64,000 nt of DNA. Source: Agromyces sp. H66. GTDB taxonomy: Bacteria; Actinomycetota; Actinomycetes; Actinomycetales; Microbacteriaceae. The notes under the pieces were generated by a model. The model was not told where the DNA came from and did not search any database. It worked only from the letters and a program-made list of their open reading frames with translations. Of this stretch, positions 40,384 to 56,460 are shown one piece after another (positions within the stretch are counted from its first letter, which is position 1; every line of letters starts with the position of its first letter). The stretch is from NCBI RefSeq assembly GCF_004959775.1, contig NZ_SJZG01000001.1:310001-374000 (forward strand), given 5' to 3'. Position numbers and translations under genes: made by a program.

Positions 40384-42402
40384 ATGCACTACGGCGCCGA
40401 CTACAACCCCGAGCAGTGGCCCGAGGAGCTCTGGCCGGAGGATGTGGCGCGCATGCGCGAGGCCGGCGTCACCATGGTGAGCCTCGGCATCTTCGCGTGG
40501 TCGCGCATCCAGCCGCGTGAGGGCGGGTTCGACTTCGGCTGGCTCGACCGGGCGATCGACCTGCTGCACGAGGGCGGCATCGCGGTCGACCTCGCCACCG
40601 CGACCGCCTCACCGCCGCCGTGGGCGACGGCCGCGTATCCCGAGATGCTGCCGCAGGACGAGAACGGCGCCACGTACTGGCCGGGCAGTCGTCAGCAGTT
40701 CGCGCCGTCGTCGCCCGTGTACCGGCGCCTGGCCGGCGAACTCGTCACCGCGATCGCCGAGCGATACGCGGCGCACCCGGCCGTCGTCATGTGGCACGTC
40801 AACAACGAGTACGGCTGCCACGTGAACATGGACTTCTCGGATGCCGCGCGCGACGCGTTCCGCCGCTGGCTCGCCGACCGCTACGCCGACGTCGACGCGC
40901 TCAACGCCGCGTGGGGGACCGACTTCTGGTCGCAGCGCTACGGGTCGTTCGACGAGGTGTTCCCGCCACGGAAGGCGCCGTACAGCGTGAACCCCGGCCA
41001 GATGCTCGACTTCCGCCGGTTCACGAGCGACATGCTGCTCGAGTGCTACCTCATGGAGCGCGAGCTCATCCGCGCGGCCGGCGCGACGCAGCCGATCACG
41101 ACGAACGTCATGGGCGCGTTCAAGCCCGCGAACTACGCGCAGTGGGCCGAGCACCTGGACGTCATCAGCGATGATGCGTATCCCGATCCGAACGATCCCG
41201 AGTCGTTCCGGGCAGCGGCGTTCCAGCGCGACCTGGTGCGGTCGCTGAAGCCCGACGTGCCATGGCTCCTCATGGAGCAGTCGACGAACGCCCTGAACTG
41301 GCGGCGGTCGAACGCGCCGAAGGCACCCGGGCAGATGGCTGCGCTGAGTGCCCAGGCGATCGGGCGCGGCGCCGACGGCATCCTCTTCTTCCAGTGGCGC
41401 CAGTCGAAGGCGGGCGCCGAGAAGTTCCACTCCGCGATGCTGCCGCACGCCGGCACCGACACGCGCACCTGGCGGGAGGTCACCGCGCTCGGCGCGCAGC
41501 TCGCGGCGCTGCCCGCGCTCCCGCAGGCCGCGCCGGGCACCAGCGACGCACGGGTCGCGCTCGTGTTCGACTGGGAGAACTGGTGGGCGGTGGAGGCATC
41601 CGATCACCCGCAGAACGGGCTCGACTACCTCGCAGTCGTGCAGCGCTGGTACCGCGCGCTGCACCGACGGCACGTGCAGGTCGACATCGTGCCGCCATCG
41701 CGCGTCGACGGCCGGTACGCGCTCGCGATCGCGCCGCTCCTCTACCTGCTGCGCGAGACGGATGCCGCGGCGCTCACGTCGTTCGTCGAGGGCGGCGGTC
41801 ACCTGCTCGCCGGCCCGTTCACCGACGTGGTCGACGAGCACGACCGGTTCCGCGACGGCGGGTTCCTGACTCAGCTCGGCGCACTCTGCGGCATCCGCCT
41901 CGAGGACTTCGGCGCGCTCGTCGCGCCGGATGCCGCAGCCGACGCGCCGGGCGAGCGCGAGGCGCGGTTCGCGGGCGAGTACGTGCCCGAGCAGGCCGGC
42001 ACGCTGCTCGCGGAGGAGATCGAGGCGACGGATGCCACGGTCGAGGCCGTATTCACGAGCGGCCGTCGCGCGGGGCATCCGGCCCTCACCGCGCGCACTG
42101 CGGGACGCGGCGTCGCCCGCTACCTCGCGACCATTCCCGACGAGACGGGCGCGCTCGCCGTGCTCGACCACGCGCTCGCGGACGCGAGCGTCTGGCCGGT
42201 CGTCGAGGGCCTTCCCGCGCATGTCGAGGTCGCCCGCCGCGGCGAGCTCGTGACTCTCGTGAACCACGGCGGCGACGACGTCGAGGTGTCGATCACGGGG
42301 ATCGACGCCGTGACCGGCGCGCGGGTCGACGCGGTGCGGCTCGGTCCGTTCGGCTGGGCCCTCGTGCTCGAGTCGGTCCCGGGTGACGAGCGCCGCATCT
42401 AG
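40384..42402 (+). CDS. GH42 beta-galactosidase
   Basis: 672 residues, intracellular (no signal peptide). The protein starts MHYGADYNPEQWPEELW, the classical GH42 opening that becomes the first barrel strand. The catalytic acid/base is Glu142 in WHVNNEYGCH and the nucleophile Glu298 in LLMEQSTNALNW. Domain B (trimerisation, about 390-600) and a short C-terminal beta domain follow. It hydrolyses terminal beta-galactosyl residues of small galactosides or galactan fragments imported by the neighbouring transporter. It lies 115 bp after the second binding protein gene and is probably co-transcribed with it under the class A operator. Confidence 0.93.
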   Translation: MHYGADYNPEQWPEELWPEDVARMREAGVTMVSLGIFAWSRIQPREGGFDFGWLDRAIDLLHEGGIAVDLATATASPPPWATAAYPEMLPQDENGATYWPGSRQQFAPSSPVYRRLAGELVTAIAERYAAHPAVVMWHVNNEYGCHVNMDFSDAARDAFRRWLADRYADVDALNAAWGTDFWSQRYGSFDEVFPPRKAPYSVNPGQMLDFRRFTSDMLLECYLMERELIRAAGATQPITTNVMGAFKPANYAQWAEHLDVISDDAYPDPNDPESFRAAAFQRDLVRSLKPDVPWLLMEQSTNALNWRRSNAPKAPGQMAALSAQAIGRGADGILFFQWRQSKAGAEKFHSAMLPHAGTDTRTWREVTALGAQLAALPALPQAAPGTSDARVALVFDWENWWAVEASDHPQNGLDYLAVVQRWYRALHRRHVQVDIVPPSRVDGRYALAIAPLLYLLRETDAAALTSFVEGGGHLLAGPFTDVVDEHDRFRDGGFLTQLGALCGIRLEDFGALVAPDAAADAPGEREARFAGEYVPEQAGTLLAEEIEATDATVEAVFTSGRRAGHPALTARTAGRGVARYLATIPDETGALAVLDHALADASVWPVVEGLPAHVEVARRGELVTLVNHGGDDVEVSITGIDAVTGARVDAVRLGPFGWALVLESVPGDERRI

Positions 42403-42448
42403 CCGGTACCCATCGCCGTGCCTCGGCCCGCTCGCGCGGCGACGTGGC

Positions 42449-42934
42449 TCATCGCCGCGAGGCGTGGCGCGCGAGATCGTCGAGCAGCCCGCGCACGAAC
42501 GCGCGGTGTCCGGGGGCGATCGCCGCCCACACCGGGCGCCCGGTCCACCGGCGGTACGCGACGACCATGGTGTGCACGACGCGGCCGGGAGTGGATGCCA
42601 GCACGAGCCGCGCGCTCAGGGTCCTGGAGTCGACGGCGAGCACCACGGCGCGGTCGTCGCTGCGCTCGACCCGCCAGCCCAGCACGTGGCCGTCGGTTCC
42701 GGGCGGGGCCAGGTCGAGACCGAGACGCCGCCATGCGGAGAGCATCCTGGCCTGCTTGCGCGGCGTGGCGCCCTCGAGCATCAGCCTGGCCCAGTCCTCG
42801 GGGGTCCGGTCGCCTTCGACCCGGATGGCGAACGCCTCGCGATAGTGGATCGGGAACTCGCCCACGAGCGCTTGGATGTCGCGGGCCTCGGAGTCGGGGA
42901 CGGATTCCACCGTCGATGCGTCGTTCGAGGCCAT
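42449..42934 (-). CDS. DUF2867-like protein
   Basis: 161 residues from ATG 42934 with AGGAG 8 nt upstream. The C-terminal half has the DUF2867 pattern LGWRVERSDDRAVVLAVDS, VVHTMVVAYRRWTGRPVW and PGHRAFVRGLLDD, forming a small beta-rich, START-like fold as far as can be judged. Function unknown. It converges on the GH42 gene and diverges from the ThuA/glycerate kinase operon. Confidence 0.65.
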   Translation of the reverse strand: MASNDASTVESVPDSEARDIQALVGEFPIHYREAFAIRVEGDRTPEDWARLMLEGATPRKQARMLSAWRRLGLDLAPPGTDGHVLGWRVERSDDRAVVLAVDSRTLSARLVLASTPGRVVHTMVVAYRRWTGRPVWAAIAPGHRAFVRGLLDDLARHASRR

Positions 42935-43039
42935 GTGTGCTCCTGAGTGCCGTCCGTGACCGAATGGTCGGGCCCCACGATAGGCCCTGATGCGCCGGCG
43001 GAACAGGTTCGCGCGGGCGACCCGGCGGGCCGGTAGCAT

Positions 43040-43055
43040 GGGAATACGCTTTCCA
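43040..43055 (+). promoter_or_regulatory. LacI-family operator, class A (GGGAATACGCTTTCCA)
   Basis: Lies 86 bp upstream of the ThuA-like gene. The last base differs from the other sites, so it may be weaker. Confidence 0.65.
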
Positions 43056-43140
43056 ATACGCGCACGGGGACGGAGCTGTTCGAGCGATGACGATCACCAC
43101 CATGGCAGGTTACGATCGAGCCGAGAGCGGAGGAGTGCAG

Positions 43141-43845
43141 ATGCGCGCGGTGGTCCTGAGCGGCTCGGGTCGCTACGCGGATCCCTGGCACGCGTTCGCC
43201 GAGACCAGCGCCGCACTGGCCGGGATCGTCGCGGGCGCCGGATACCGGGTCGACGTGAGCGACGACCTCCTCGGCGGACTCGCGAACCTCGGCGACGCCG
43301 ACCTGCTCGTCGTGAACGCCGGCAACCCGAACACTCCGCTGCCCGAGGGGGCGAGCGACCCCGGTCCGGCTCGCGACGACGAGATCGCCGCGGCATCCGC
43401 CGGCCTCGACGCCGCCCTCGAGCGCGGCATCGGCATCCTCGCCGTGCACGCCGCGGCAGCCACCCTGCCAGAGATCCCCGCCTTCGTGCACGCCCTCGGC
43501 GCGCGTTGGATCGAGGACGTTTCGTGGCATCCGCCGATCGGCGAGACGCTCGTGCACGTCGTCGGTTCGCACCCGATCGCCGACGACCTCGACGACTTCA
43601 CCGTGTACGACGAGCGCTACTCGGGCCTGCGCCTCGACGACGTGATCGAGCCCATCGCCGAGCACGAGGAGGGCGGCATGCGTCACCCCCTGGTCTGGGC
43701 TCGTGAGCTCGGCCACTCCCGGCTCGTCTACGACGCCCTCGGGCACGACGTGCGCTCCTACGATTCGACCGGCCATCGCGAACTCCTCACGCGTGCGCTC
43801 GACTGGCTCTCGCACGTGCCGGCACCGACGTTCGACGCGTCGTGA
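43141..43845 (+). CDS. ThuA-like domain protein
   Basis: 234 residues from ATG 43141, GGAGGAGTGCAG upstream. ThuA family (class I glutamine-amidotransferase-like fold): GILAVHAAAATLPEIPAFVHALGARW, followed by LVHVVGSHPIADDLDDFTVYDERY, HPLVWARELGHSRLVYDALGHD and a C-terminal RALDWL. The GATase nucleophile Cys is absent, as in other ThuA proteins. ThuA in Sinorhizobium takes part in trehalose/3-keto-sugar catabolism together with the Gfo-type enzyme ThuB. Its stop overlaps the glycerate kinase start by 4 bp, and a class A operator precedes it. Confidence 0.88.
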   Translation: MRAVVLSGSGRYADPWHAFAETSAALAGIVAGAGYRVDVSDDLLGGLANLGDADLLVVNAGNPNTPLPEGASDPGPARDDEIAAASAGLDAALERGIGILAVHAAAATLPEIPAFVHALGARWIEDVSWHPPIGETLVHVVGSHPIADDLDDFTVYDERYSGLRLDDVIEPIAEHEEGGMRHPLVWARELGHSRLVYDALGHDVRSYDSTGHRELLTRALDWLSHVPAPTFDAS

Positions 43846-44954
43846 CGCGCGTCCTGCGGGTCGTCATCGCTCCCGACTCGTTCAAGGGCACGGCGAGCGC
43901 CGCGGATGCCGCTGCCGCCCTCTCGGCCGGGTGGCGCGCGGTGCGGCCCGACGACGAACTGACGCAGCGCCCTATGGCCGACGGCGGCGAGGGCACGCTC
44001 GACGCGCTCGAGTCGGCGGTGCCGGGCGCTCGGCGCGTGCCGGTCACGGTGCGCGGGCCCGGGGCCGCGGCAGCGCCCGTCGCGACGCACTGGCTGCGGC
44101 TGCCCGACGGCACGGGCGTCGTCGAGCTCGCCGCCACGTCGGGCATCACGCTGCTCGACCCGCTCGCGCCGCTCGACGCGCACACCGCCGGGTTCGGCGA
44201 GGCGATCGCCGCGGCGCTCGACGCGGGTGCGACGCGCCTGCTGCTCGGGCTCGGCGGCAGCGCCTCGACCGACGGCGGCGCCGGCGCGCTCGCCGTGCTC
44301 GGGGCGCGGTTCGCGGATGCCACGGGCGAACCGGTCGCGCTCGGCAACCGCGGCCTCGGCGCACTCGCGCACGTGGACCTCTCCGGGCTTCGGCCCCTGC
44401 CGTCGCGCGGCGCGCTGATCCTCGGCGATGTCACGAACCCGCTGCTCGGCGAGCACGGGGCGGCCGCCGTGTTCGGGCCGCAGAAGGGGGCGGATGCCGC
44501 GGCCGTCGAGATGCTCGAGCGGCACCTCGATCGGCTCGCGAGCCTCGTGCCCGAGGACGTGCGACCGCTCGCCGCCGCGCCCGGCGCCGGCGCCGCGGGC
44601 GGCACCGGGTTCGGATTGCTCGCCTGGGGTGCCGAGATGGGCGGCGGAGCCGAGCTCGTCGCGGCAGCGGTCGGGCTACCTGCGGCCGTGGCGGGCGCCG
44701 ACCTCGTGATCACGGGGGAGGGGCGCTTCGACGGGCAGTCCGAGGCGGGCAAGGCGCCCACGGTGGTGGCGTCGCTCGCGCACGCCGCCGGCGTGCCGAC
44801 CGCGTTGGTGGCCGGCGCGATCACGGCCGAGCCACGCGGATTCGGGGCATCCCTCGCCCTCGCCGACCTCGCCGACAGCGGTGCCGCCGCGATCGCGGAG
44901 CCGCTGCGGTGGCTCCACGCCGCGGGTGCCGAGCTCGCGCGCACGGTCGGCTGA
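43842..44954 (+). CDS. Glycerate kinase, GlxK/GarK family
   Basis: 370 residues from GTG 43842 (GTGA overlap with the ThuA-like gene). The family pattern is complete: VVIAPDSFKGTASAADAA at the start, RPMADGGEGTLDAL, LGLGGSASTDGGAGALAVLGARF, FGPQKGAD, GGGAELVAAAVGL and LVITGEGRFDGQSEAGKAP. It phosphorylates D-glycerate to 2- or 3-phosphoglycerate, the exit of aldarate catabolism via tartronate semialdehyde. Although KdgD-type enzymes in this region lead to 2-oxoglutarate instead, the presence of this gene under the same operator class suggests a second branch producing glycerate. Confidence 0.9.
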   Translation: MTRVLRVVIAPDSFKGTASAADAAAALSAGWRAVRPDDELTQRPMADGGEGTLDALESAVPGARRVPVTVRGPGAAAAPVATHWLRLPDGTGVVELAATSGITLLDPLAPLDAHTAGFGEAIAAALDAGATRLLLGLGGSASTDGGAGALAVLGARFADATGEPVALGNRGLGALAHVDLSGLRPLPSRGALILGDVTNPLLGEHGAAAVFGPQKGADAAAVEMLERHLDRLASLVPEDVRPLAAAPGAGAAGGTGFGLLAWGAEMGGGAELVAAAVGLPAAVAGADLVITGEGRFDGQSEAGKAPTVVASLAHAAGVPTALVAGAITAEPRGFGASLALADLADSGAAAIAEPLRWLHAAGAELARTVG

Positions 44955-44967: not shown

Positions 44968-46341
44968 CTACTCGGCGTACCGCTCGGGTTCGCGCTCGGG
45001 TCGCAGCAGATCGTCCGATCGGAACTGCACGAACGAGCCCCCTCGGGCGAGCCCGCTGTCGGCGGCGATGCGGTCGGCGATGTCGTTCAGCGCGCGCGGC
45101 AGCGCGACATCTTCCCAGCGACCGGTGTCGAGGCGCTCCTGCAGGGCGGTGACCAGGGCGGCGATCTCCGCGCCGGCGTAGGCGCAGTGCCCCGGTCGAT
45201 CCACGAAGGCCTGCCGGAGCAACGGTGCATCGCCGTTCCCGCGCACCCGATCGGCGTAGGTCCCCGCCTGCTGCACCACGGGGGCCGAGTCACCCGACTC
45301 GTGCAGCGACAGCACCGGCCCGTCGATGTCGCCCACGGGCGTGGCGTTGCGCTGCATGTAGGCGACGGCATCCGGGTCGGCGGCGATCCGCTCCCCGGCG
45401 TTCAGCACCTCGAGATCGTCGGCGAGCGAGAGCCCCGCCTCGCGATACAGCTCGCGCACGAGCCGCGCCTCGCCCGAATCGCGGAGCGCCGCGGCGTAGT
45501 CCACGTCGGTGTTCCAGGAGAAGTTGCCGCCCGCACGCTGTTCCAGGGGCTGGCGCGGGGAGACGACCCCCCACATGAAGATGCGGTAGAGCTGCTCCTG
45601 TCGGGCCGCGATGTCGCGCGGCTCGGGACGCTCCGTTCCGACCTGCGACCACGTGGGCATCTGCGCGAGCGTGGCGGCGAGCGCGATGCGCGCGCGGCCC
45701 TCCGGCGTCTGCTGCGCCGTGTCGAGCACCTCCCGGAACGCCGCCTGGCGGGCGCGTTCGTCGGTGATGTCCACGAGCTCGAGGCGGGAGTCGTCCGGCG
45801 CGAGGAGCAGCTTCAGCGCGTACGTCCCGTCGAGCGAGCCGTTCAGCATCGGGATGGCGCCGGCGATCGACCCGCACAGCGGGAGGGCCGCGTCGAAGAC
45901 ATCCGGATTCTGCTCCATGAGCGCCACCGCCACTTGTCCGCCCATCGATGCGCCCCACGCGACGACGTGCTCCGGCTCGCCCAGCTCCGCGGTGGCGGCC
46001 TCGACGACCTGCGGTTGCGCGGCGAGGAGATCTTCGACGGCCCAGCCGGAACCGGCCGCGGCACCGGCGAGCGCGTACCCCTGGTCGATGAGCCAGCCCA
46101 CGGTCTCCTCGGAGGGTCCGCCGGTGGGCACGCCACCGCCGCCGCCGTATCCGGGACTCCAGGTGAGCAGGGTGCCGTTCCAGGACTCCGGCTCGAAGAG
46201 GACGTAGCGGCCTCCGCCGGGGAGGTCGCCCCGTGTCTCGGTCACGGTCGTCTCGGCGGCAGCGGCCGCCGACACCGCCGAGACGACCAGCACGAGCGAG
46301 GCCACGGTCGCGAGCGCAGCCGAGATCGGTCGAGATGACAT
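44968..46341 (-). CDS. Secreted alpha/beta hydrolase
   Basis: 457 residues; start at ATG 46341 with GAAGGA upstream, followed by a Sec signal peptide (hydrophobic to about residue 30, AAAAE cleavage). Alpha/beta-hydrolase fold with the nucleophile elbow GASMGG (about residue 130), a preceding LIDQGYALAGAAAGSGWAVEDL segment that lies where the oxyanion loop would be, and a late His in VDRPGHCAYAGAEIAAL that fits the catalytic histidine. An ESGDSAPV segment may supply the acid. The substrate class (ester, peptide or amide) cannot be decided. It diverges from the PhnD/P450 operon, sharing a 310-bp regulatory region, so it may release the molecule that this operon imports. Confidence 0.8.
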   Translation of the reverse strand: MSSRPISAALATVASLVLVVSAVSAAAAAETTVTETRGDLPGGGRYVLFEPESWNGTLLTWSPGYGGGGGVPTGGPSEETVGWLIDQGYALAGAAAGSGWAVEDLLAAQPQVVEAATAELGEPEHVVAWGASMGGQVAVALMEQNPDVFDAALPLCGSIAGAIPMLNGSLDGTYALKLLLAPDDSRLELVDITDERARQAAFREVLDTAQQTPEGRARIALAATLAQMPTWSQVGTERPEPRDIAARQEQLYRIFMWGVVSPRQPLEQRAGGNFSWNTDVDYAAALRDSGEARLVRELYREAGLSLADDLEVLNAGERIAADPDAVAYMQRNATPVGDIDGPVLSLHESGDSAPVVQQAGTYADRVRGNGDAPLLRQAFVDRPGHCAYAGAEIAALVTALQERLDTGRWEDVALPRALNDIADRIAADSGLARGGSFVQFRSDDLLRPEREPERYAE

Positions 46342-46415
46342 GTCGTCCTTCCCGCGACGCGGCTCGCCGTGGCAGCCAGGGCGCTCCTCGATGAGCGCGT
46401 CGCGCATCCGTGAAA

Positions 46416-46446
46416 GCAAGCGACACTTCATTCGGCGATCGCTTGC
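46416..46446. promoter_or_regulatory. Inverted repeat GCAAGCGA-N15-TCGCTTGC, candidate operator
   Basis: Perfect 8-bp arms, 23-bp centre-to-centre, in the divergent promoter region. No other copy was noticed in this window. Confidence 0.5.
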
Positions 46447-46513
46447 AGAACTGTTGCGCTGCACTCTGGCATCACTCCGATGGTGCTGTCAATCGGTCGT
46501 TGCCGTGGCAAAG

Positions 46514-46526
46514 GTCAACTGTTGAC
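46514..46526. promoter_or_regulatory. Palindrome GTCAACTGTTGAC, candidate operator
   Basis: Perfect 6-bp arms around one base, overlapping the TTGACA at 46522-46527, so a bound protein would block RNA polymerase. Confidence 0.45.
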
Positions 46527-46651
46527 AATCTCAAAGATATATGGTCTTCTCGATACGCAACACTTCCCCCGACGGACGTTGCTCAATGCGCTGGCCCGCG
46601 ACGATGCGGTCGGGCGCGGCGGACACCGAGGTCCTATCGAAAGGTTCAAGG

Positions 46652-47647
46652 ATGAACAAGACGCTCCTGAGCACGGCGACGTTCCTCGCCGCCGCCATGA
46701 TCCTCACCGGGTGCGGTGCGAGTCCCAACGCTCGCGGCGGTGACGACGACAGCGCCTCCGGCGCACCGTCCGAGCTGGTGTTCGCCGTCGTCCCGACCGA
46801 CGACAGCGAGGAGCTCGAGAACTCGTTCCGCCCCATCGTCGCCGCCATCGAAGAGGTCACCGGCATCCCCACCCGCATCGAGGCGGTCAGCAGCAATGCG
46901 GGTGTCATCGAGGCGCAGGTCGCCGAACGCGTCGACATCGCCACGTACGGCGCGTTCTCCTACTACCTGGCCTCGGATGTCGCGGAGGTGACGCCCATCG
47001 CGAAGGATCAGCGCACCCCCGAGCCCGGTTCGGGCGCGGTGCTCTCGCTCGGCGTGGTCGCGCCGGGCTCCGACATCGCGTCCATCGAGGACGTCCGCGG
47101 GAAGAACGTGTGCTTCACCGACCCGGCATCGACGACGGGATACCTGACCGCCGCGGTGGCGATGAACGAGGCCGGAATCGACCCGGAGAACGACATCAAC
47201 CCCCTCTTCGTCGGCTCGCACGACGTGGCGGTCACCCAGATGCTCGCCGGCGACTGCGACGTCGCGTTCGTGGCAGAGCCCTTCGTCACGTCGATCCTTC
47301 CCGCGCGCGGGATCATCGCCGAAGGAGACACCGAGACGGCGTGGACGTCGGACCCGATCCCCGGCACCCCGATCGTGGTCGGGGACTGGCTGAGCGAGGA
47401 ACTGCGCGCCCAGATCGTCGAGGCCGTCACCGGCTACGACGCCGTCACCGCGTACGAGGCCGGGTTCTGCGACGAGCACAACCGCGAAGCACCCGAGCAG
47501 TGGGGCGCCGAGTACGCCGGTGAGACGGCGTGCATGTGGGGCGGGACCGGGGCGTTCGCCTTCGAAGCGGCCGAGGCGGCCGACTACGACCTCATCGGGG
47601 AGATCTGCGAGGCGCTCGACACCGACGTGTGCCGCAGCGAGGGGTGA
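46652..47647 (+). CDS. PhnD-family substrate-binding lipoprotein (substrate not established)
   Basis: 331 residues, start ATG 46652. The signal sequence ends in the lipobox MILTGC (Cys about residue 21). Mature part is of the PhnD/SsuA/transferrin-like type: LVFAVVPTDDSEELENSFRPIVAAIEEVTGIPTRIE, VGSHDVAVTQMLAGDCDVAFV and GTPIVVGDWLSEE. Several Cys residues (about five in the mature part) are more than usual and may form disulfides. PhnD proteins bind phosphonates, phosphite or phosphate esters, but relatives bind other small anions or organics. The gene is followed by matching ATPase and permease genes and a P450; no C-P lyase or phosphonatase genes are present. Confidence 0.87.
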   Translation: MNKTLLSTATFLAAAMILTGCGASPNARGGDDDSASGAPSELVFAVVPTDDSEELENSFRPIVAAIEEVTGIPTRIEAVSSNAGVIEAQVAERVDIATYGAFSYYLASDVAEVTPIAKDQRTPEPGSGAVLSLGVVAPGSDIASIEDVRGKNVCFTDPASTTGYLTAAVAMNEAGIDPENDINPLFVGSHDVAVTQMLAGDCDVAFVAEPFVTSILPARGIIAEGDTETAWTSDPIPGTPIVVGDWLSEELRAQIVEAVTGYDAVTAYEAGFCDEHNREAPEQWGAEYAGETACMWGGTGAFAFEAAEAADYDLIGEICEALDTDVCRSEG

Positions 47648-47684
47648 CCACATCGCCATGACACTCATCCAGGGAGCGACCGGC

Positions 47685-48464
47685 ATGGCTGCAACAGGGA
47701 AGGCCGACGACACGGGAGCGAGCGTCGTCCTCCGCGAGGTCGGCATGCGCTTCGGCGAGAATGTCGTGCTCGACCGCGTGAACCTCACCGTCACGCCCGG
47801 CCAGTTCGTCGCCCTCGTCGGACCATCAGGCGCCGGGAAGTCGACGCTCCTGCGACTGATGAACGGCAGCCACCGGCCGACCGCGGGCTCCCTGTCGGTG
47901 CTCGGCGTGAACCCGGCGACCTGCAGCCGCCCTGAGCTCCGCCGGCTTCGCAGACGCACGGGCTTCGTCTTCCAGCAGTTCGGGCTCGTGGGGCGTCTCA
48001 GCGCCATGGAGAACGTGCTCATGGGGGCGCTGGGATCGTTGCGGATGCCGTGCTACGGCATCGCGACCTACCCGCGCCCCCTGCGCGAGCGAGCGCTCGC
48101 GAACCTCGAGCGGGTCGGTCTCGTCGACCAGCGCCACCAGCGCTGCGACACCCTCTCGGGCGGGCAACAGCAGCGCGTGGCCATCGCCCGCACGCTCATG
48201 CAGGAGGCCGAGCTCGTCCTCGCCGACGAACCCGTGGCCTCGCTCGATCCGAACGCGAGCATCTCGGTGCTGCAGACCCTGCGCAAGCTCAGTGCGGAAG
48301 ACGGGTTCACCGTCATCTGCTCGCTCCACCAGGTCGAGCTCGCGCTCGAGGTCTCCGACCGCGTGGTCGCCGTCCGCGACGGCGCGTTCGTTCTCGACGC
48401 GTCCACCAGTCGTACGAGCCAGGAGGACATCCGGGCGGTCTACGCGCAAGCGAAGCAGGGCTGA
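47685..48464 (+). CDS. PhnC-family ABC ATP-binding protein
   Basis: 259 residues from ATG 47685, which has GGGAG 8 nt upstream. An alternative ATG at 47658 in the same frame would add nine residues but has a poorly placed RBS. The ATPase has Walker A GPSGAGKST, FVFQQFGLVGRLSAMENVLMG (PhnC-typical Q-loop region), LSGGQQQRVAIAR signature, LVLADEPVASLDP Walker B and SLHQ for the switch His. It energises the fused permease. TGATG overlap with the next gene shows translational coupling. Confidence 0.9.
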   Translation: MAATGKADDTGASVVLREVGMRFGENVVLDRVNLTVTPGQFVALVGPSGAGKSTLLRLMNGSHRPTAGSLSVLGVNPATCSRPELRRLRRRTGFVFQQFGLVGRLSAMENVLMGALGSLRMPCYGIATYPRPLRERALANLERVGLVDQRHQRCDTLSGGQQQRVAIARTLMQEAELVLADEPVASLDPNASISVLQTLRKLSAEDGFTVICSLHQVELALEVSDRVVAVRDGAFVLDASTSRTSQEDIRAVYAQAKQG

Positions 48465-50101
48465 TGCCGCAGACGCTCGAACGACCCCCGGCGACGCAGC
48501 CGACGAGACGCGCTCCCGGGCGGCCTCGGCCGTCCGTCGCGACGATCGGCATCCCCCTCGCCTACGTCGCGGTGACCGTCTTCGCCCTGTGGTGGCTGGA
48601 CATCCGCCCGGCGGCCCTCCTCGCCGGGTTCGAGGACATCGCTCGACTGGTGCAGCGCATGGTGCCGCCGACGACGGGAGATCCCGGCAGCCTGGTGTCG
48701 CTCGCGATCGAAACACTGTGGATCGCGATCGCGGGGACCGGCATCGCGACCATCCTGTCGGTGCCGCTCGCGGCGGCGGCCTCCCGCCACTTCGCCGGGC
48801 CACGCGTCATCGGGTGGTTGGCTCGCGGGACCATCGTCGTCACGAGGGCGATCCCCTCTCTCGTGTTCGCGCTCATCCTCGTGCGGATCGTCGGACTCGG
48901 TCCCCTCGCGGGGGGCCTCGCGATCGCCTTCCACTCGGTCGGCATGATCGGGAAGATGTTCGCCGACGTGTTCGAGGAACTCGAACCGTCACCGCGAGAA
49001 GCCGTCCGTGCCGTCGGTGCGACGCGAGCGCAGAACTTCGTCGCGACGACGCTGAGCCGCGCGCTGCCCAGCCTCACCTCGATCGTCCTCTACCGACTCG
49101 ACATCAACATCCGTGCCTCGGCCGTGCTCGGACTCGTCGGCGCGGGCGGCATCGGCCTGGCACTGCAGACGGCGATCGGCTCGCTCGACTACCGGCGGGC
49201 GCTCGGCATCATCCTGGTCATCGTCATCATGCTGCTGGCGCTCGAACTGGTGGCCTACCTCGCCCAGCGCGCCCTCTCCGAGCACGCCGAGGAGCACAGT
49301 GCCGCCCAGCTCTACGGAGAAGGGCGCGCCGCGGCATCCCCGGGCTGGAACCGCTCGCGCATCCTGCGCGTGGGGTCGGGCCTCGCCGCGCTGGTCGTCT
49401 TCGCCGTCTCGCTGGCGCAGGTGCTGGCCGATCCGCCCTCGTTCGGACGGCTCTGGGCGAACACCGCGCGAGTGCTGTCGGGGTTCTTCCCGCCGGTCTT
49501 CTCTCCCGACATCGCCTACGGCATCTTCGAGAGCGTCGTCATGGCGCTCTCGGCCACGACGTTCGGCGTCGTGTTCGGTCTCGTGATCGCCGTGTTGTCG
49601 ACGCGGCATCTCGTGCGCTTCGAGCCGCTCTCGCTGGCGCTCCGGGGCCTCATGGTGCTGCTCCGGGGGGTACCCGACATCATCTTCGCGCTCCTCTTCG
49701 TGGCGGCGCTCGGACTCGGTCCCTTCGCCGGATTCCTGGCGCTGGCGATCTCGTGCACGGCCCTGGCGGCGAAGTTCTTCACGGACTCCCTCGTGCGCGT
49801 CGACCCCGCTCCGCTGCGAGCGCTCGAAGCGACCGGCGCCGGTCGGATGCAGGTGTTCGTGAGCGGGGTCTGGCCGCAGTTCGTGCCGAGCTTCATCGGC
49901 AACAGCCTCTTCACGTCCGACCTCGCCCTCCGTGAGTCGGCGGTGCTCGGCATCGTCGGCGCGGGCGGTATCGGCTTCCTCCTCGAGGAGTCGATCGCCA
50001 CCCTCCACTACGACACCACGGCGGGCATCCTCATCGCACTGGTCGTGGTCGTGGTGGCCCTCGAGGCCGTCGCGCGCTGGGCACGCAGAAAGGTGATCTG
50101 A
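48464..50101 (+). CDS. Fused double PhnE-type permease
   Basis: 545 residues, nearly twice a normal PhnE (about 260-290). Both halves are complete permease domains: first half with EAVRAVGATRAQNFVATTLSRALP (EAA loop, about residues 178-201) and ASAVLGLVGAGGIG; second half with ALEATGAGRMQVFVSGVWPQFVPSF (about 455-479) and ESAVLGIVGAGGIG. The linker region is at about residues 270-310. In most phosphonate importers two identical PhnE subunits form the channel; here a single chain replaces the dimer, permitting asymmetric halves. It begins in a TGATG overlap with the ATPase gene and is followed, one base later, by the P450 gene. Confidence 0.9.
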   Translation: MPQTLERPPATQPTRRAPGRPRPSVATIGIPLAYVAVTVFALWWLDIRPAALLAGFEDIARLVQRMVPPTTGDPGSLVSLAIETLWIAIAGTGIATILSVPLAAAASRHFAGPRVIGWLARGTIVVTRAIPSLVFALILVRIVGLGPLAGGLAIAFHSVGMIGKMFADVFEELEPSPREAVRAVGATRAQNFVATTLSRALPSLTSIVLYRLDINIRASAVLGLVGAGGIGLALQTAIGSLDYRRALGIILVIVIMLLALELVAYLAQRALSEHAEEHSAAQLYGEGRAAASPGWNRSRILRVGSGLAALVVFAVSLAQVLADPPSFGRLWANTARVLSGFFPPVFSPDIAYGIFESVVMALSATTFGVVFGLVIAVLSTRHLVRFEPLSLALRGLMVLLRGVPDIIFALLFVAALGLGPFAGFLALAISCTALAAKFFTDSLVRVDPAPLRALEATGAGRMQVFVSGVWPQFVPSFIGNSLFTSDLALRESAVLGIVGAGGIGFLLEESIATLHYDTTAGILIALVVVVVALEAVARWARRKVI

Positions 50102-50102
50102 G

Positions 50103-51350
50103 ATGGGCGGATGCCCCTACACGCGGGCGACCGCGTCCGCGGCCGCCGGCGACGCCGACACCCGCACGCGCGACCAGCGCACCGGCGAATGGTCGCCGGC
50201 GCTCGAGGAGGAGTTCGGCACCGCCCACTCCCAGTACGCCGAGTTGCGGCAGACGAACCCGTTCCCCTGGAGCGAGGACTTCGGCGGCTTCTGGGCGGCG
50301 ACGACGTACGACGACGTGGTGCGCGTCACCCAGGACGAGCGGTTCATCACCTCGGTGCAGAACGTGGTGCCGCACGTTCCCCGCTCGTCTCGACGTCCGC
50401 CCCTGCACTTCGACCCGCCCGAGCACACCGCCTACCGGGAGGCGATCGATCCGGTGATGCGGCGAGGCGTGGTGAGAACCCACGAGGCGGCGTTCCGCGC
50501 GAGCGCCGAGGAGCACGTCGGCGCGATGCTGAATCGTGGCGGCGGCGACGGAATCGCCGACTTCGCCGCCCCCTTCGTCGTCGACTGCTTCGCGGCGTAC
50601 CTCGGAGTGCCGGCGGAGCTGACCCGACGAGTTCGCGAGATCGGCGTGCGCTACGGCTTCGCCATCCAGGACATGGACGACCCGGTGATCGCCGAGTGCA
50701 GTGCGCAGCTGTACGAGATCGCGGAGCGGCTGTACCACGCCCGCCTCGCGCAGGAACCCGACCCGAGCCTCGATCTCGTGGCGAGCCTGCACGCCGCCGC
50801 CCAGGATCCCTCGAACCACATCACGGAGCGGACGGCCATCGCCACCATCCGACAGATGATCGTCGCCGGCATGGCCGCCCCGCAGGCGGTCCTCGGAAGC
50901 TGCGTCGTCCACCTCGCGGGCGACCCGGAACTGCAGGCCCGCCTCCGCGCGAAGCCCGAGGACCTGCCCGCCGCCATCGAGGAGTTCCTTCGCCTGCACG
51001 CCCCGTACCGGGTCTTCGCCCGCACGCCGCGCGAGGACGTGGTCGTGCACGGTCGACTCGTGCGCGAACGGGAGCCGATCGCGCTCATCTACCCCTCGGC
51101 CAATCGCGACCCGGAGGTGTTCCACGATCCTGACGAGTTCGTGCTGCACCGGAGGAACAACTCGCATCTGGCGTTCGGACGGGGCGCTCACCGGTGTCCC
51201 GCGGCGACGATGGGACGCGTGGAGTTGCTCATCGCCCTCGAGACGCTGCTGGCGCGAACGAGGTCGTTCGAGCTCGACGGCGCGGTCCGGATGATGAACT
51301 GGCTCGAGTACGGGCCGCGTACGGTACCCCTGCGGATCGATGCCGCGTAA
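50103..51350 (+). CDS. Cytochrome P450 with atypical I-helix, in a PhnD-type importer operon
   Basis: 415 residues, soluble bacterial class. Start ATG 50103, one base after the permease stop, with AAAGG upstream. Features in order: Glu294-x-x-Arg297 in EEFLR (K-helix) and a heme-ligand Cys365 in FGRGAHRCPAA. The I-helix, normally AGx(D/E)T(T/S), reads A255-G-M-A-A-P-Q, so the acidic residue and the conserved Thr that deliver protons to bound oxygen are both missing. This suggests a peroxygenase, a reductive or rearranging enzyme, or a substrate-assisted mechanism. No ferredoxin gene is adjacent. Its substrate is presumably what the importer brings in or a product derived from it. Confidence 0.88.
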   Translation: MGGCPYTRATASAAAGDADTRTRDQRTGEWSPALEEEFGTAHSQYAELRQTNPFPWSEDFGGFWAATTYDDVVRVTQDERFITSVQNVVPHVPRSSRRPPLHFDPPEHTAYREAIDPVMRRGVVRTHEAAFRASAEEHVGAMLNRGGGDGIADFAAPFVVDCFAAYLGVPAELTRRVREIGVRYGFAIQDMDDPVIAECSAQLYEIAERLYHARLAQEPDPSLDLVASLHAAAQDPSNHITERTAIATIRQMIVAGMAAPQAVLGSCVVHLAGDPELQARLRAKPEDLPAAIEEFLRLHAPYRVFARTPREDVVVHGRLVREREPIALIYPSANRDPEVFHDPDEFVLHRRNNSHLAFGRGAHRCPAATMGRVELLIALETLLARTRSFELDGAVRMMNWLEYGPRTVPLRIDAA

Positions 51351-51407
51351 GCCGGTGCACTCCGGGGGCGTGCCGACGCACGTACCGCCCATCGGTGCCG
51401 CGGCTGG

Positions 51408-51413
51408 CACAAT
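51408..51413 (+). promoter_or_regulatory. -10-like element CACAAT before the PaaX-family gene
   Basis: CACAAT ends 6 nt before ATG 51420, and no Shine-Dalgarno sequence is present, so a leaderless transcript separate from the P450 operon is possible. Confidence 0.3.
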
Positions 51414-51419
51414 CTGGGT

Positions 51420-52349
51420 ATGACCGACCGGCTGCTCCCACGTCACCAGCAGGGAGCACGGTCGCAGCAGCTCCTCACCGTTCTCCTCGGCGACTATTGG
51501 CACCTGCGCGACGAACCCCTTCCCTCGGCGGCGCTCGTCGCGCTGCTGGGCCGGTTCGGTGTCACACCCGCCGGAGCTCGGGCGGCGGTGCAGCGGCTCG
51601 CACGCCGCGGCTTCCTCGTGCCCGTGAGGTCGGGCCGGACGACCCTCTACGCCGTTCCTCCGATGAGCCGGGAGCGGGTCGACGCCCATGTGCGCATCCT
51701 GTTCCGAACCGACCCGGGGCAGGAGTGGGACGGCACCTGGACCCTGGTGAGCTACTCCCTCTCGGAAGATCAGCGCAGCACGAGGAATGCGCTTCGCGAG
51801 CAGCTTCGCCAGGCGCGGTTCGGGTCCGTCCACGACGGTCTCTGGGTGCGGCCCGGCGACGCCAGACCGGTGGTCGACGAGATCCTGGGCGCCATGGGGG
51901 AGTCACCCTCGGGCGGTCAGCTCGCCATCTTCGTCGGCGCGCGCCTTCCGCACGGCGACCAGGTGGAGTTCTCCAGTCAGGCCTTCGGACTCGACGGCGT
52001 CGCCGCCGACTACCGCCGGTTCATCTCACGGTGGCAGGAGGTCGCCGCCCGGGTGGGTGAGGGGATCGACGACGCACACGAAGCGCTCCAGCTGCGAACG
52101 TCGATCATGCGCGACTGGCGTGAGCTTCGGCACGAGGACCCCATGCTCCCCCCTGAGCTCCTCGGTGGGGGATTCCCCTTCGACGAGGCGCTCGACGTGT
52201 GCTCCACGGTGTACGACCGCACCGGTCCGGCTGCCGAAGAGGCCTTCCGCGGCATCCTCCGCACCCACGCCCCCGAGCTGGCCGACTTCGTCTCGCACCA
52301 CACCTTCGCCGCCTACCGGTCCGACGACTCGATGAGGCGGGTCAGGTAG
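51420..52349 (+). CDS. PaaX-family transcriptional regulator
   Basis: 309 residues. N-terminal winged-helix: SQQLLTVLLGDYWHLRDEPLPSAALVALLGRFGVTPAGARAAVQRLARRGFL, typical of PaaX. The central domain has WDGTWTLVSYSLSEDQRSTRNALREQLRQARFGSVHDGLWVRP, and the C-terminal domain the MRDWRELRHEDPMLPPELL block, both characteristic of PaaX/PaaX_C. PaaX proteins repress aromatic-acid catabolism and respond to CoA thioesters, although other members act on different pathways. It lies 69 bp after the P450 gene; candidate binding sites are the inverted repeats upstream of PhnD. It overlaps the convergent GH10 gene by 8 bp. Confidence 0.9.
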   Translation: MTDRLLPRHQQGARSQQLLTVLLGDYWHLRDEPLPSAALVALLGRFGVTPAGARAAVQRLARRGFLVPVRSGRTTLYAVPPMSRERVDAHVRILFRTDPGQEWDGTWTLVSYSLSEDQRSTRNALREQLRQARFGSVHDGLWVRPGDARPVVDEILGAMGESPSGGQLAIFVGARLPHGDQVEFSSQAFGLDGVAADYRRFISRWQEVAARVGEGIDDAHEALQLRTSIMRDWRELRHEDPMLPPELLGGGFPFDEALDVCSTVYDRTGPAAEEAFRGILRTHAPELADFVSHHTFAAYRSDDSMRRVR

Positions 52350-53600: not shown

Positions 53601-55016
53601 TCAGGCGCCCGCGGCGCCCGCGGCGGACCGCGCGCGCTCGGCGTACTGGTGCCGGATCTCGGGCCGCGTGTCGGGCGCGACCTCCTCGGCGATCTCGACG
53701 GGCCAGCCCGGCCGTTCGCCCGAGAGCACCCACGCGGCCTGGCGCGCGGCGCCGTCGGCGACGTATTCGCCCGGGGCCGGCACGACGACGGGCACGTCGA
53801 ACACCTGCGCGGCGATGCGTCGCACGGCCGGGTTCTGGGCGGCGCCGCCGATGAGCAGCACGCGCTCGGCCGCGACGCCCTGGCCGCGCACGGCGTCGAG
53901 TCCGTCGGCGAGCCCGCACAGCATGCCCTCGATCGCGGCGCGGGCCACCGCCGGGCGCGTGGTGTTCGCGAGCGTGAGACCGGTCAGCGACGCCGTGGCG
54001 CCCGGCAGGTTCGGCGTGCGCTCGCCTTCGAAGTACGGCACGAGCACGGCGCCGGATGCCCCGGGCCCCGCCTCGAGCGCGAGGCGTCCGAGCTCGGCGT
54101 GGTCGACCGCGAGGAGGCGCGCGGTGGCGTCCAGGACGCGGGCGGCATTCAGCGTCGCGATGAGCGGCAGGTACCGTCCCGTCGCGTCGGCGAAGCCCGC
54201 CACGGTGCCCGAGGCGTCGGCGACGGGGGCATCCGTCACCGCGAACACCGTGCCGCTCGTGCCGATCGAGACGACGACGTCGCCGGATGCCGCGTCCAGG
54301 CCGAGTGCGGCGGCCGCGTTGTCGCCCGCGCCCGGGCCGACGAGGATGCCGTCGGGTGTGCGGCCGGCGGCCTCGCCGGGGCCGAGCACGCGGGGGAGGA
54401 TCGCGTCGTGCCCGAGCGCCCGCACGAGGAGGTCGCGGTCGTAGCCGCCCGAACCCCAGTACGCCGTGCCGCTCGCGTCGGAGCGGTCGGTGGTGAGCTC
54501 GTCGAGCACCGGCCCGAGCGCCGACTCACCCTCGGGCCCGAAGCCACGGAGGCGCCAGGTCAGCCAGTCGTGGGGGAGTGCGACCGCGGCGACCCGGGCG
54601 GCATGCTCGGGCTCGGCGTCGCGGAGCCAGCGCAGCTTCGTGGCCGTGAACGACGCGACGGGCACGACGCCCGTGCGACGTGCGTACTCGTCGGCGCCGA
54701 CCTCGTCGATGAGGTCGCGCGCGGCCTGTGCCGACCGGGTGTCGTTCCAGAGCAGGGCGTCGCGGATGACCCGTCCCTCGGCATCGAGCACGACCATGCC
54801 GTGCTGCTGCCCGCCGATCGAGACGGCCTCGACGCCCTCGAACCCGCCCGCGTCGGCGAAGGCGGTGAGCAGCGCGCCCCACCAGGCGGCGGGGTCGACC
54901 TCGGTGCCGTCGGGATGCGCGGCGCGGCCGGAACGCACGAGGGTCCCGGTCGCGGCATCCCGGATCACGACCTTGCAGGACTGCGTCGACGAGTCGACGC
55001 CGGCGACGAGGGTCAT
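53601..55016 (-). CDS. xylB: Xylulokinase
   Basis: 471 residues. FGGY family kinase: N-terminal [38 protein letters not shown], and C-terminal [32 protein letters not shown] and [19 protein letters not shown]. It phosphorylates D-xylulose to xylulose 5-phosphate. Adjacent xylA supplies the substrate. The 138-bp gap before it on the xylA side contains a long hairpin, so it may have its own promoter or be partially separated from xylA. Confidence 0.93.
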
Positions 55017-55059
55017 GGGTGGTCGACTCCGATCGTGAATTTCTCGAGGGTTAACGTTG

Positions 55060-55118
55060 CCCGCCGAGTGTTACCGATTGTTCCGGGCCGTGCGCGGCCA
55101 ACGTGAACAGTCGGCGGG
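55060..55118. terminator. Long imperfect hairpin between xylA and xylB
   Basis: CCCGCCGAGTGTT (55060-55072) and AACAGTCGGCGGG (55106-55118) pair at 12 of 13 positions; the loop contains a further GGCCG/CGGCC stem. Transcription runs right to left here, from xylA into xylB. The hairpin may partially terminate or process the message. Confidence 0.55.
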
Positions 55119-55154
55119 TTGAGGGGGGAGAGGGCGGGGGAGCGGACGGGAGGA

Positions 55155-56348
55155 TCAGCCGCGGGCGCCGAGCAGGTGCTCGGTGGCGAGCTGCTGCAGG
55201 CGCACGAACCCGAAGCCCCTGCCGCCGAGGTAGGCCGACGGGTCGAAGTCCTCGTAGGCCGAGCGGTCGGCGAGCAGGTCGTCGTACGACTCGCCGTCGT
55301 TCAGCGTCGGCTTCGCGAGCTCGGTCACCTTCGCGGCCTCGAGCGCCGCCTGCACCTCGGGGTCGGCGCGGAAGGCCGCGGCGCGCTCCTTGAGCAGGAG
55401 GTAGGTGCGCATGTTCGCGGCGGCCGAGTCCCAGACGCCGGACTCGTCCTCGGTGCGGCTCGGCTTGTAGTCGAAGTGACGGGGGCCCGTGTAGGCCGGG
55501 CTGCCGCCGGGGCCGCCGTTCTCGAGCAGGTCGACGAGCGCGAACGCGTTGTGCAGGTCGCCGTGGCCGAACACGAGGTCCTGGTCGTACTTGATGCCGC
55601 GCTGGCCGTTGAGGTCGATGTGGAAGAGCTTGCCGTGGTACAGCGCCTGCGCGATGCCGGCGGCGAAGTTGAGGCCGGCCATCTGCTCGTGACCCACCTC
55701 TGGGTTGAGGCCGACCAGCTCGGGGCGCTCGAGCGAGTCGATGAAGGCAAGCGCGTGCCCGACCGTGGGCAGCAGGATGTCGCCGCGCGGCTCGTTCGGC
55801 TTCGGCTCGATGGCGAAGCGGATGTCGTAGCCCTTGTCGGTGACGTACTGGCCGAGCAGGTCGACCGCTTCGCGGTAGCGCTCGAGAGCCGATCGCACGT
55901 CTTTCGCGGCGTCGTACTCGGCGCCCTCGCGGCCGCCCCACATGACGAACGTCTTCGCGCCGAGCTCGGCGGCGAGGTCGAGGTTGCGGAGCACCTTGCG
56001 GAGCGCGAAGCGGCGCACCTGGCGGTCGTTCGACGTGAACCCGCCGTCCTTGAAGACGGGGGCGCTGAAGAGGTTCGTCGTGATCATCGGCACGATGATG
56101 CCGGTGGCCTCGAGGGCACCCTTCAGCCGGTCGATCTGCTTCTGCCGTTCGGCGTCGGAGGAGCCGAACGCGAACAGGTCGTCGTCGTGGAAGGTGAGGC
56201 CGTAGGCGCCGAGCTCGTCGAGCTTCTCGACGACGTGCACCACGTCGAGCGGATGCCGCGTGGGGCCGCCGAACGGGTCGGTGCCGTTGTAGCCGACCGT
56301 CCACAGGCCGAAGGAGAACTTGTCGTCACGGGTCGGGGCGCTGGCCAT
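55155..56348 (-). CDS. xylA: Xylose isomerase, class I
   Basis: 397 residues, the short class I form found in actinobacteria. Active-site elements: [13 protein letters not shown] (catalytic His), [17 protein letters not shown] (Glu and Lys of the metal site), [40 protein letters not shown] (metal ligands Asp and Glu/His). It converts D-xylose to D-xylulose. It is the first gene of the xylA/xylB/GH10 group, with the candidate XylR operator and -10/-35 upstream and a LacI gene divergent from it. Confidence 0.95.
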
Positions 56349-56454: not shown

Positions 56455-56460
56455 CAGCTT

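What the first reader, a model, noticed from the sequence alone, without database searches (positions are those of the whole stretch)
44968..52349. Candidate new module: secreted hydrolase, PhnD/PhnC/fused-PhnE importer, P450 and PaaX regulator
Five genes run from 46652 with spacings of 37, -1, 1 and 69 bp, so importer and P450 form one operon. A secreted alpha/beta hydrolase diverges from it and shares a 310-bp regulatory region with two inverted repeats. PhnD-type importers normally travel with C-P lyase, phosphonatase or phosphite genes; none is here. A P450 translated directly behind the permease suggests uptake of an organic molecule, perhaps released by the hydrolase, that is then oxidised, with PaaX sensing a product or CoA thioester. 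The functional reading is inference; the gene order is seen.
Basis: partly seen in the sequence, partly recalled or inferred. Interest (0 to 1): 0.78.

Follow-up and report, generated by a model that had tools for sequence, protein, structure and literature searches.

The report
Conserved esterase–importer–P450 catabolic gene module
A set of six neighbouring genes, kept together in actinobacteria of several families, probably lets them cut an ester outside the cell, take up the piece released and oxidise it with an unusual P450; the importer comes from a phosphonate-uptake family but seems to have changed its cargo.

Summary
In detail: hydrolase (−), PhnD, PhnC, fused PhnE-PhnE, P450 and PaaX-like genes, spaced 37, −1, 1 and 69 bp. 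The module is real. All 17 loci found with a close relative of this P450 (57–80% identity; Microbacterium, Arthrobacter, Citricoccus, Frigoribacterium, Nocardioides, Thermocatellispora) carry all six genes; their P450s form one clade. Sibling PhnDs (28–42%) show no such P450 in nine regions read. Siblings keep two tyrosines at phosphite-contact positions of PtxB; P450-linked PhnDs have Asn and, in 17 of 18, Val. The P450 lacks the I-helix acid–alcohol pair (A-P in 51 of 55 rows). It is the genome's only P450 match, and no Fer4_13, Fer4_15 or stand-alone Fer2 ferredoxin was found there. CoA-pathway genes co-occur: a CapA/CoA-transferase/HGD-D operon, the HGD-D pair lacking conserved cluster cysteines, and an amidohydrolase/MaoC/CoA-ligase block. 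Best reading: catabolism of an esterified organic acid by secreted esterase, repurposed importer, P450 and CoA thioester under PaaX-type control. The substrate is unknown.

The parts
44968..46341 (-). secreted alpha/beta hydrolase (esterase-like; Ser132, Asp351, His385 proposed triad, signal peptide by eye)
   Evidence: triad positions kept in 32 of 32 aligned rows (window included); present in 17 of 17 module loci
46342..46651 (.). divergent intergenic region
46522..46550 (+). conserved promoter-like element: TTGACA (46522-46527), 17-nt spacer with CAA and TG
   Evidence: TTGAC in the same aligned column in 16 of 18 upstream regions, somewhere in the 310 bp in 17 of 18 (L024 has TTGAG; in L035 it lies nearer the gene)
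46553..46565 (+). ATA-x-x-C-x-ACA box just after the promoter-like element, conserved as a consensus; possible operator (inference)
46652..47647 (+). PhnD-family lipoprotein, solute-binding protein of the importer
47685..48464 (+). PhnC-like ABC ATPase
   Evidence: TIGR02315 261.2 bits, just under the cut-off of 266.1
48464..50101 (+). fused PhnE-PhnE permease (two PhnE stretches in one chain)
   Evidence: TIGR01097 433.9 bits, 2 stretches
50103..51350 (+). cytochrome P450 without the I-helix acid-alcohol pair
50865..50882 (+). P450 I-helix motif A255-G-M-A-A-P260 in place of [AG]-G-x-[DE]-T
51195..51197 (+). P450 haem-ligand cysteine codon (Cys365)
   Evidence: Cys in 55 of 55 rows
51420..52349 (+). 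PaaX-family regulator
   Evidence: present in 17 of 17 module loci

Best explanation
This is a conserved catabolic module of Actinomycetota. A secreted esterase cuts an ester in the environment (inferred). The released piece, probably an organic anion with a bulky tail, is taken up by a PhnD-PhnC-PhnE-PhnE importer recruited from phosphonate-type PhnDCEE importers; its binding pocket has since changed (residue changes shown, ligand change inferred). A P450 without the usual proton-relay pair oxidises it (P450 shown, reaction inferred). The product is made into a CoA thioester and degraded by an acyl-CoA route (co-occurring genes shown, order of steps inferred). A PaaX-type repressor probably answers to a CoA-thioester intermediate (inferred from the family).
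For: All six genes in 17 of 17 close-P450 loci from six named genera; one P450 clade, support 100/97. PhnD siblings at 28-42% identity: nine regions read, none with a match to this P450. Neighbours were scanned in five of the nine: L101 has PhnX-like, HpnW and HpnZ and L100 has HpnW, all over cut-off; L097, L098 and L100 have PhnF-like regulators under cut-off; L103 shows nothing phosphonate-specific. At the position of PtxB Y55 the P450-linked PhnDs have Asn in 18 of 18 and 18 of 18 siblings read have Tyr; at PtxB Y100 / GpxB Y138 they have Val in 17 of 18 against Tyr in 18 of 18; Ser160, Thr/Ser161, Thr162 and His190 are kept; the PtxB cap Tyr position is Thr in 16 of 18. Distant P450 relatives (38-48%) lie near other importers, esterases and PaaX. 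CoA genes: HGD-D in 11 of 16 module genomes held, against 9 of 299 Microbacteriaceae; amidohydrolase in 16 of 16 against 42 of 299; CapA and CoA-transferase with the HGD-D pair in 10 of 10 module genomes whose copy was read; CoA ligase and MaoC beside the module in four Microbacterium loci and Thermocatellispora. Hydrolase model: best-ranked fold matches include feruloyl esterases and MHETase.
Against: No substrate, transcript or enzyme assay. The importer keeps most of the oxyanion site of phosphonate/phosphite binders, so a phosphorus ligand is not excluded, and L035, the deepest branch, still has one of the two tyrosines. Five of 16 module genomes have no HGD-D match; in the window's own genome that operon is about 190 kb from the module and the best amidohydrolase match about 290 kb. 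The amidohydrolase is also in 41 Microbacteriaceae genomes without the close P450, so it is not specific. The hydrolase fold matches are weak (TM 0.3-0.4 for feruloyl esterases and MHETase) and Pfam Tannase fits 1 of 35 homologues, weakly. Distant P450 relatives may have other substrates. Fisher tests ignore shared ancestry.
Confidence: 0.55

Rival explanations
1. The importer still carries a phosphorus compound (a phosphonate or phosphate ester with a bulky tail), the hydrolase frees it from a lipid or ester, and the P450 oxidises the tail before phosphorus is used.
For: Ser/Thr/Thr-His head motif kept in 18 of 18; closest solved proteins are PtxB, GpxB and ArrX; the cap position is Thr, as in the glycerol-phosphate binder GpxB.
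Against: Two Tyr head contacts replaced; no C-P lyase, phosphonatase or phosphatase among the six module proteins or the ten flanking window proteins scanned; linked genes point to CoA-thioester metabolism.
Confidence: 0.2
2. The P450 and importer serve detoxification or resistance: a toxic plant or microbial ester is hydrolysed outside and inactivated inside rather than used as food.
For: Patchy presence: among 299 Microbacteriaceae only the window's own genome has a close P450; a local regulator.
Against: An ABC importer is an odd part of a detoxification system (inference); CoA-ligase, CoA-transferase and HGD-D genes co-occur.
Confidence: 0.12
3. The module makes a secreted metabolite or signal, with the hydrolase acting as a maturation or resistance enzyme.
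For: P450s are common tailoring enzymes; several of the best NCBIfam P450 matches, all far under cut-off, are models from biosynthesis.
Against: No biosynthetic core gene among the six module proteins or the ten flanking proteins scanned; an importer rather than an exporter; PaaX-type control and CoA-catabolism partners.
Confidence: 0.08
4. Chance adjacency of a phosphonate importer and an unrelated P450.
For: None found.
Against: 17 of 17 conservation across six genera, one clade, and a residue shift in PhnD that coincides with the P450.
Confidence: 0.01

Closest known systems
PhnDCE / PtxABC-type phosphonate and phosphite importers (TIGR01098 subfamily; PhnT family 3.A.1.9, as named in PMC12718374)
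   Same: SBP, ATPase and permease genes together; fused PhnE also beside siblings; Ser/Thr/Thr-His head motif
   Different: Below the PhnD equivalog cut-off (150.5 against 261.1); two head-contact Tyr replaced by Asn and Val; P450, PaaX and hydrolase instead of phosphonate genes
GpxB glycerol-1-phosphate binder (PDB 9lf9; PMC12718374, passages read)
   Same: No cap Tyr; Thr at the Thr247 position; Asn at the PtxB Y55 position
   Different: Tyr138 is Val; the Arg223 position is a variable Ser/Thr/Asp/Glu/Gln; different gene neighbours
BstB, a PF12974-type protein that binds sterols (PMC10942540, passages read)
   Same: PhnD fold used for a non-phosphonate ligand; our PhnD model matches PDB 7t1m, titled a bacterial sterol transporter and taken here to be BstB (rank 43)
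   Different: 15% identity; no P450 module known to me
Peroxygenase or otherwise non-canonical P450s (CYP152, P450nor; recalled)
   Same: Acid-alcohol pair missing; Pro in the I-helix of CYP152 (recalled)
   Different: CYP152 has Arg-Pro (recalled); P450nor carries Ala-Thr (recalled)
Novosphingobium/Croceicoccus plasmid clusters (L050, L051, L053, L074)
   Same: P450 of the same family; esterase or CocE/NonD hydrolase, TonB receptor and CapA near it; an HGD-D gene on the same record (6 of 8 P450 plasmids)
   Different: TRAP or MFS importers and LacI/GntR regulators in place of PhnDCE and PaaX; P450 42-43% identical

Membership tests
PhnD phosphonate-binding protein (TIGR03431) | score over the equivalog cut-off | tested here: not met
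   150.5 against 261.1 bits; the wider subfamily TIGR01098 is met, 169.5 against 112.05
PhnD phosphonate-binding protein (TIGR03431) | Ser-Thr-Ser plus His oxyanion motif | tested here: met
   Ser160, Thr/Ser161, Thr162, His190 in 18 of 18; third residue Thr instead of Ser
PhnD phosphonate-binding protein (TIGR03431) | the two Tyr head contacts (PtxB Y55, Y100) | tested here: not met
   Asn82 in 18 of 18; Val130 in 17 of 18, Tyr in L035; the 18 siblings read have Tyr at both
PhnD phosphonate-binding protein (TIGR03431) | phosphonate-catabolism genes nearby | tested here: not met
   none among the six module and ten flanking window proteins scanned
PtxB phosphite binder | cap Tyr208 with Asp22 | tested here: not met
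   Thr239 and Thr49 at these positions in the window protein
Cytochrome P450 | haem-ligand Cys and ExxR | tested here: met
   Cys in 55 of 55 rows; ExxR in 55 of 55
Canonical O2-activating P450 monooxygenase | I-helix acid-alcohol pair | tested here: not met
   A-P at this place in 51 of 55 rows, 18 of 18 in the module clade
Canonical O2-activating P450 monooxygenase | dedicated ferredoxin and reductase | tested here: inconclusive
   no Fer4_15 or Fer4_13 match in the genome; three Fer2 matches, all in larger proteins: PaaE, a ferric-reductase-like protein, a xanthine-dehydrogenase-type protein; a crude pattern scan of loci found only chance matches; a general donor is not excluded
PaaX (TIGR02277) | three PaaX domains | tested here: met
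   PF07848, PF20803, PF08223
PaaX (TIGR02277) | score over the equivalog cut-off | tested here: not met
   112.7 against 264.55 bits
Tannase/feruloyl esterase (PF07519) | match to the family profile | tested here: not met
   1 of 35 homologues, weakly, E 7.8e-4
Tannase/feruloyl esterase (PF07519) | Ser-Asp-His triad | tested here: met
   S132, D351, H385 in 32 of 32 rows
2-hydroxyacyl-CoA dehydratase / benzoyl-CoA reductase (associated operon) | Fe-S cluster cysteines | tested here: not met
   no conserved Cys in 18 alpha-like rows (best column 11 of 18); in 23 beta-like pieces, some of one gene twice, three of the four BzdN Cys positions considered hold no Cys; which Cys bind the cluster is recalled
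Phosphonate or organic-acid importer | measured ligand | not testable with these tools
   needs a binding assay

The most novel reading that the evidence does not exclude
A P450 lineage found in Actinomycetota, Pseudomonadota, Bacillota and Myxococcota works without the proton-relay pair, and perhaps without a dedicated ferredoxin, by non-canonical oxidative chemistry. It is the hub of an ester-to-CoA catabolic system whose importer is swapped between lineages. In this clade a phosphonate importer was converted to a new cargo, and the partner HGD-D pair is a derivative of benzoyl-CoA reductase-type proteins without cluster cysteines, probably oxygen-tolerant and with a new activity.
Probability: 0.3. 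Interest if true: 0.8.

Novelty: new variant of a known kind. Interest (0 to 1): 0.62.

Why it matters
Genes of this importer family are labelled phosphonate or phosphite uptake by the profile libraries; this clade would be a clear case where that label is wrong, with named residues that mark the switch. The P450 lineage offers a test of how a P450 without the acid-alcohol pair works in catabolism. The set of partners (esterase, importer, P450, CoA genes, PaaX) gives a concrete route to an unknown natural ester that many bacteria may eat.

Tried and rejected
Chance adjacency: rejected. Rfam search of the window: no match at gathering score. Inverted repeats as operator: arms not conserved. Naming the P450 by its CYP family through the Novosphingobium aromaticivorans literature: no naming list seen in the listing of 7 papers (none opened). 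Ferredoxin near the P450 by sequence pattern: only chance matches in Cys-rich frames; the pattern is crude. HGD-D activator: the genome has two BcrAD_BadFG matches; one fits a NagK model far under its cut-off, the other only the general family, so an activator is neither shown nor excluded. Literature: searches for PaaX/P450/PhnD/Microbacterium/gene cluster (1 paper listed), HGD-D/P450/CoA transferase/CapA (20 of 186 listed), PaaX family/P450/hydrolase/degradation/Microbacterium (none), HgdB/P450/Novosphingobium/CoA transferase, PaaX/P450/esterase/operon (none) and PhnD/P450/operon/regulator gave no title or abstract start that describes this module; those papers were not opened, and only the open-licence library was searched. 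The N. aromaticivorans P450 lies beside catechol/muconate genes, but the annotated regions of the other plasmids do not show this, so I did not use it to name a substrate. Fisher tests ignore phylogeny and, for the amidohydrolase and HGD-D comparisons, set module genomes of several families against Microbacteriaceae alone. In one search the proteins from L107, L110 and L111 were taken in wrong frames; redid them in the right ones.
Full report
OBSERVATION. ORF listing and translation (one search was in a wrong frame and was replaced) give a minus-strand hydrolase (44968-46341, ATG start), then PhnD-like (46652-47647), PhnC (47685-48464), fused PhnE-PhnE (48464-50101), P450 (50103-51350) and PaaX-like (51420-52349), spaced 37, −1, 1 and 69 bp. 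Pfam and NCBIfam agree. The PhnE protein matches TIGR01097 twice in one chain. The PhnD-like protein passes the wide phosphate/phosphite/phosphonate subfamily but is far under the PhnD equivalog cut-off. The PaaX-like protein has all three PaaX domains but is under the PaaX equivalog cut-off. The window lies in a 4.23-Mb genome, C1:310001-374000; the genus is probably Microbacterium (inference: the nearest P450s are in that genus).

CONSERVATION. One scan of 84,980 species genomes with the P450 (a search for close relatives by short patterns) gave 31 loci. I searched all 31 with the six window proteins (matches over 60 bits shown). The 17 loci with P450 identity of 57% or more (L019-L035) all hold PhnD, PhnC, fused PhnE, P450, PaaX and hydrolase. 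PaaX follows the P450 on the same strand in 16; in L035 two PaaX genes lie beside the hydrolase. The hydrolase is divergent in 9 and downstream of PaaX in 8; a second, 36-41% identical hydrolase is present in 10. The other 14 loci (40-48%) show no PhnD or PhnE match; six have a PaaX match and three a hydrolase match. A tree of 55 P450 rows puts the 18 module P450s on one side of a branch (support 100/97). The close form is rare: of 299 Microbacteriaceae genomes six had a P450 match at E <= 1e-40, and only the window's own was above 44% identity.

THE IMPORTER. A search of 396 genomes of the order gave 36 with a PhnD match at E <= 1e-25, 38 matches in all. Besides the window's own, one was close (66%, G406; its contig has the same length as L030's, so probably the same genome, and it carries the module). 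The other 36 matches are 28-42% identical. I fetched nine regions around such matches (L097-L105, 12-20 kb each); none shows a match to this P450. I scanned ten neighbouring proteins from five of the nine. L101 has PhnX-like, HpnW and HpnZ and L100 has HpnW, all over their cut-offs; L097, L098 and L100 have PhnF-like regulators under cut-off; L103 shows nothing phosphonate-specific. So at least two siblings sit in phosphonate operons. From passages of two structural papers (PMC5700983; PMC12718374) and the profile alignment I mapped the phosphate-head contacts. The module PhnDs keep Ser160, Thr/Ser161, Thr162 and His190 in 18 of 18 rows. The PtxB Y55 position is Asn82 in 18 of 18, and the PtxB Y100/GpxB Y138 position is Val130 in 17 of 18 (Tyr in L035). 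The 18 siblings that I could read as loci (of 36) have Tyr at both. The PtxB cap Tyr208 position is Thr in 16 of 18 module rows; in siblings it is Asp in 14, Ser in 3, Thr in 1. The AlphaFold model (mean pLDDT 78.8) matches PtxB, GpxB and ArrX best, and lower down 7t1m, a bacterial sterol transporter, which I take to be BstB, described in PMC10942540 (passages) as PhnD-like. I infer that the oxyanion head site was partly rebuilt and the tail space opened, so the ligand probably changed; a phosphorus ligand with a large tail is not excluded.

THE P450. Haem Cys and ExxR are present in 55 of 55 rows. The I-helix [AG]Gx[DE]T is replaced by G-(M/I)-x-A-P: A-P in 51 of 55 rows and in all 18 module rows. 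The four exceptions are two very distant rows (26% and 29%) and two second P450s in L043 and L044. The genome's only PF00067 match is this P450. No Fer4_15 or Fer4_13 ferredoxin was found. Three Fer2 matches exist, all in larger proteins: PaaE, a ferric-reductase-like protein and a xanthine-dehydrogenase-type protein. A general electron donor is not excluded. A review (PMC9112060, passages) says that interrupting the acid-alcohol pair hinders the normal O2 route and leads to H2O2. What replaces the pair here is unknown; peroxide use, substrate-assisted protonation or another reaction are all open.

THE HYDROLASE AND REGULATION. The proposed triad Ser132, Asp351, His385 is kept in 32 of 32 aligned rows. 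Of 35 homologues scanned, 24 match Peptidase_S9, 20 Hydrolase_4, 13 Esterase, 11 the tannase-like DUF6351 and 1 Tannase. The model (mean pLDDT 88.2) finds feruloyl esterases, other esterases, MHETase and also dehalogenases and acyltransferases among its 50 best-ranked matches, with TM-scores of 0.3-0.4 for feruloyl esterases and MHETase. Esterase is thus likely and its substrate unknown. An alignment of 18 upstream regions shows a TTGAC column in 16 (17 of 18 have TTGAC somewhere in the 310 bp, at varying distances), a spacer with CAA and TG, and then an ATA-x-x-C-x-ACA box.

WIDER SYSTEM. Around the distant P450s I read regions in Microbacteriaceae, Nonomuraea-type actinobacteria, Massilia relatives, Bacillaceae and Novosphingobium/Croceicoccus plasmids. 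Importer types differ: PhnS2/PhnU2/PhnT2-like ABC (far under their cut-offs), TRAP, TAXI-TRAP and HpaX-like MFS. Recurrent partners are PaaX, esterases (Tannase, S15/CocE, PETase-like), CapA, CoA-transferase III and an HGD-D pair. In the 299-genome sample HGD-D is in 9 and the P450 in 6, with 5 shared (Fisher 3.9e-8; 1.1e-6 without the own genome). On plasmids the P450 is in 8 and the HGD-D alpha protein in 7 of 72,556 records, 6 shared. Among the 16 module genomes that were held (2 of 18 were not), HGD-D is in 11. I read the region in 10 of these 11 (G300 was not fetched), and all 10 have CapA and CoA-transferase with it; a further HGD-D region of G311 (L070) does not. The operon lies within about 2-14 kb of the module in L019, L022, L034 and L035 (my arithmetic), about 190 kb away in the window's genome, and on other contigs or unplaced in the rest. 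Beside the module, CoA ligase and MaoC lie in L019-L022, the amidohydrolase in L019, L021 and L022, an SDR in L022; the whole block is in Thermocatellispora (L068); L027 has a CoA ligase only. The amidohydrolase is in 16 of 16 module genomes searched against 42 of 299 Microbacteriaceae, so it is common elsewhere too. These tests do not correct for kinship. The HGD-D proteins have no conserved Fe-S cysteines (which Cys bind the cluster is recalled), which would fit aerobic hosts but leaves their activity unknown.

MECHANISM AND VERDICT. Shown: gene content, conservation, residue shifts, co-occurrence. Inferred: ester hydrolysis outside, uptake of the released anion, oxidation by the P450, CoA activation, PaaX control. 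A CoA route with MaoC, SDR and an amidohydrolase would suit an alicyclic or aromatic acid, but that is a guess. The single parts belong to known families; the combination, the pocket change and the P450 motif make it a new variant of a known kind, namely ester-catabolic clusters.

Noticed in passing
L063 10088-18665 (same genome, C1 about 162-171 kb) and L034, L065-L069, L071-L073: Second conserved operon: SBP_bac_3 importer, CapA/PGA_cap, CoA-transferase III, HGD-D pair without conserved cluster cysteines, in many copies an MFS_3 gene; co-occurs with the P450 family.
   Followed up: partly
L019-L022, L068: CoA-pathway block beside the module: AMP-dependent CoA ligase and MaoC in all five, amidohydrolase 2 in L019, L021, L022 and L068, SDR in L022 and L068, acyl-CoA dehydrogenase in L022; the amidohydrolase is in 16 of 16 module genomes searched.
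   Followed up: partly
L019-L022, about 12.3-17 kb: A second PaaX-like gene (26-28% identical) and a second ABC importer with an NMT1-type binding protein downstream of the module in four Microbacterium loci.
   Followed up: no
L037, L040, L042, L043, L044, L049, L054: Tandem pairs of P450s of the same family; in L043 and L044 the second copy has a different I-helix (AGHIAV).
   Followed up: no
L074 (Novosphingobium sp. EMRT-2 plasmid), also L050, L051, L053: P450 of the family in plasmid clusters with TonB receptor, esterase or CocE/NonD hydrolase and CapA. TRAP and CoA-transferase genes are annotated in L074, L050 and L051; HGD-D in L074 and L051, and just beyond the fetched stretch in the L050 plasmid.
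   Followed up: partly
window 38910-44954 and 53601-61017: Module is flanked by sugar-type genes (SBP, GH42 beta-galactosidase, ThuA, glycerate kinase; FGGY kinase, xylose-isomerase-like, LacI, sugar-type ABC importer), apparently unrelated.
   Followed up: no
L019 hydrolase, about 4956: The L019 hydrolase frame ends about 27 residues before the end of the match to the window protein (stop codon within the tblastn match).
   Followed up: no
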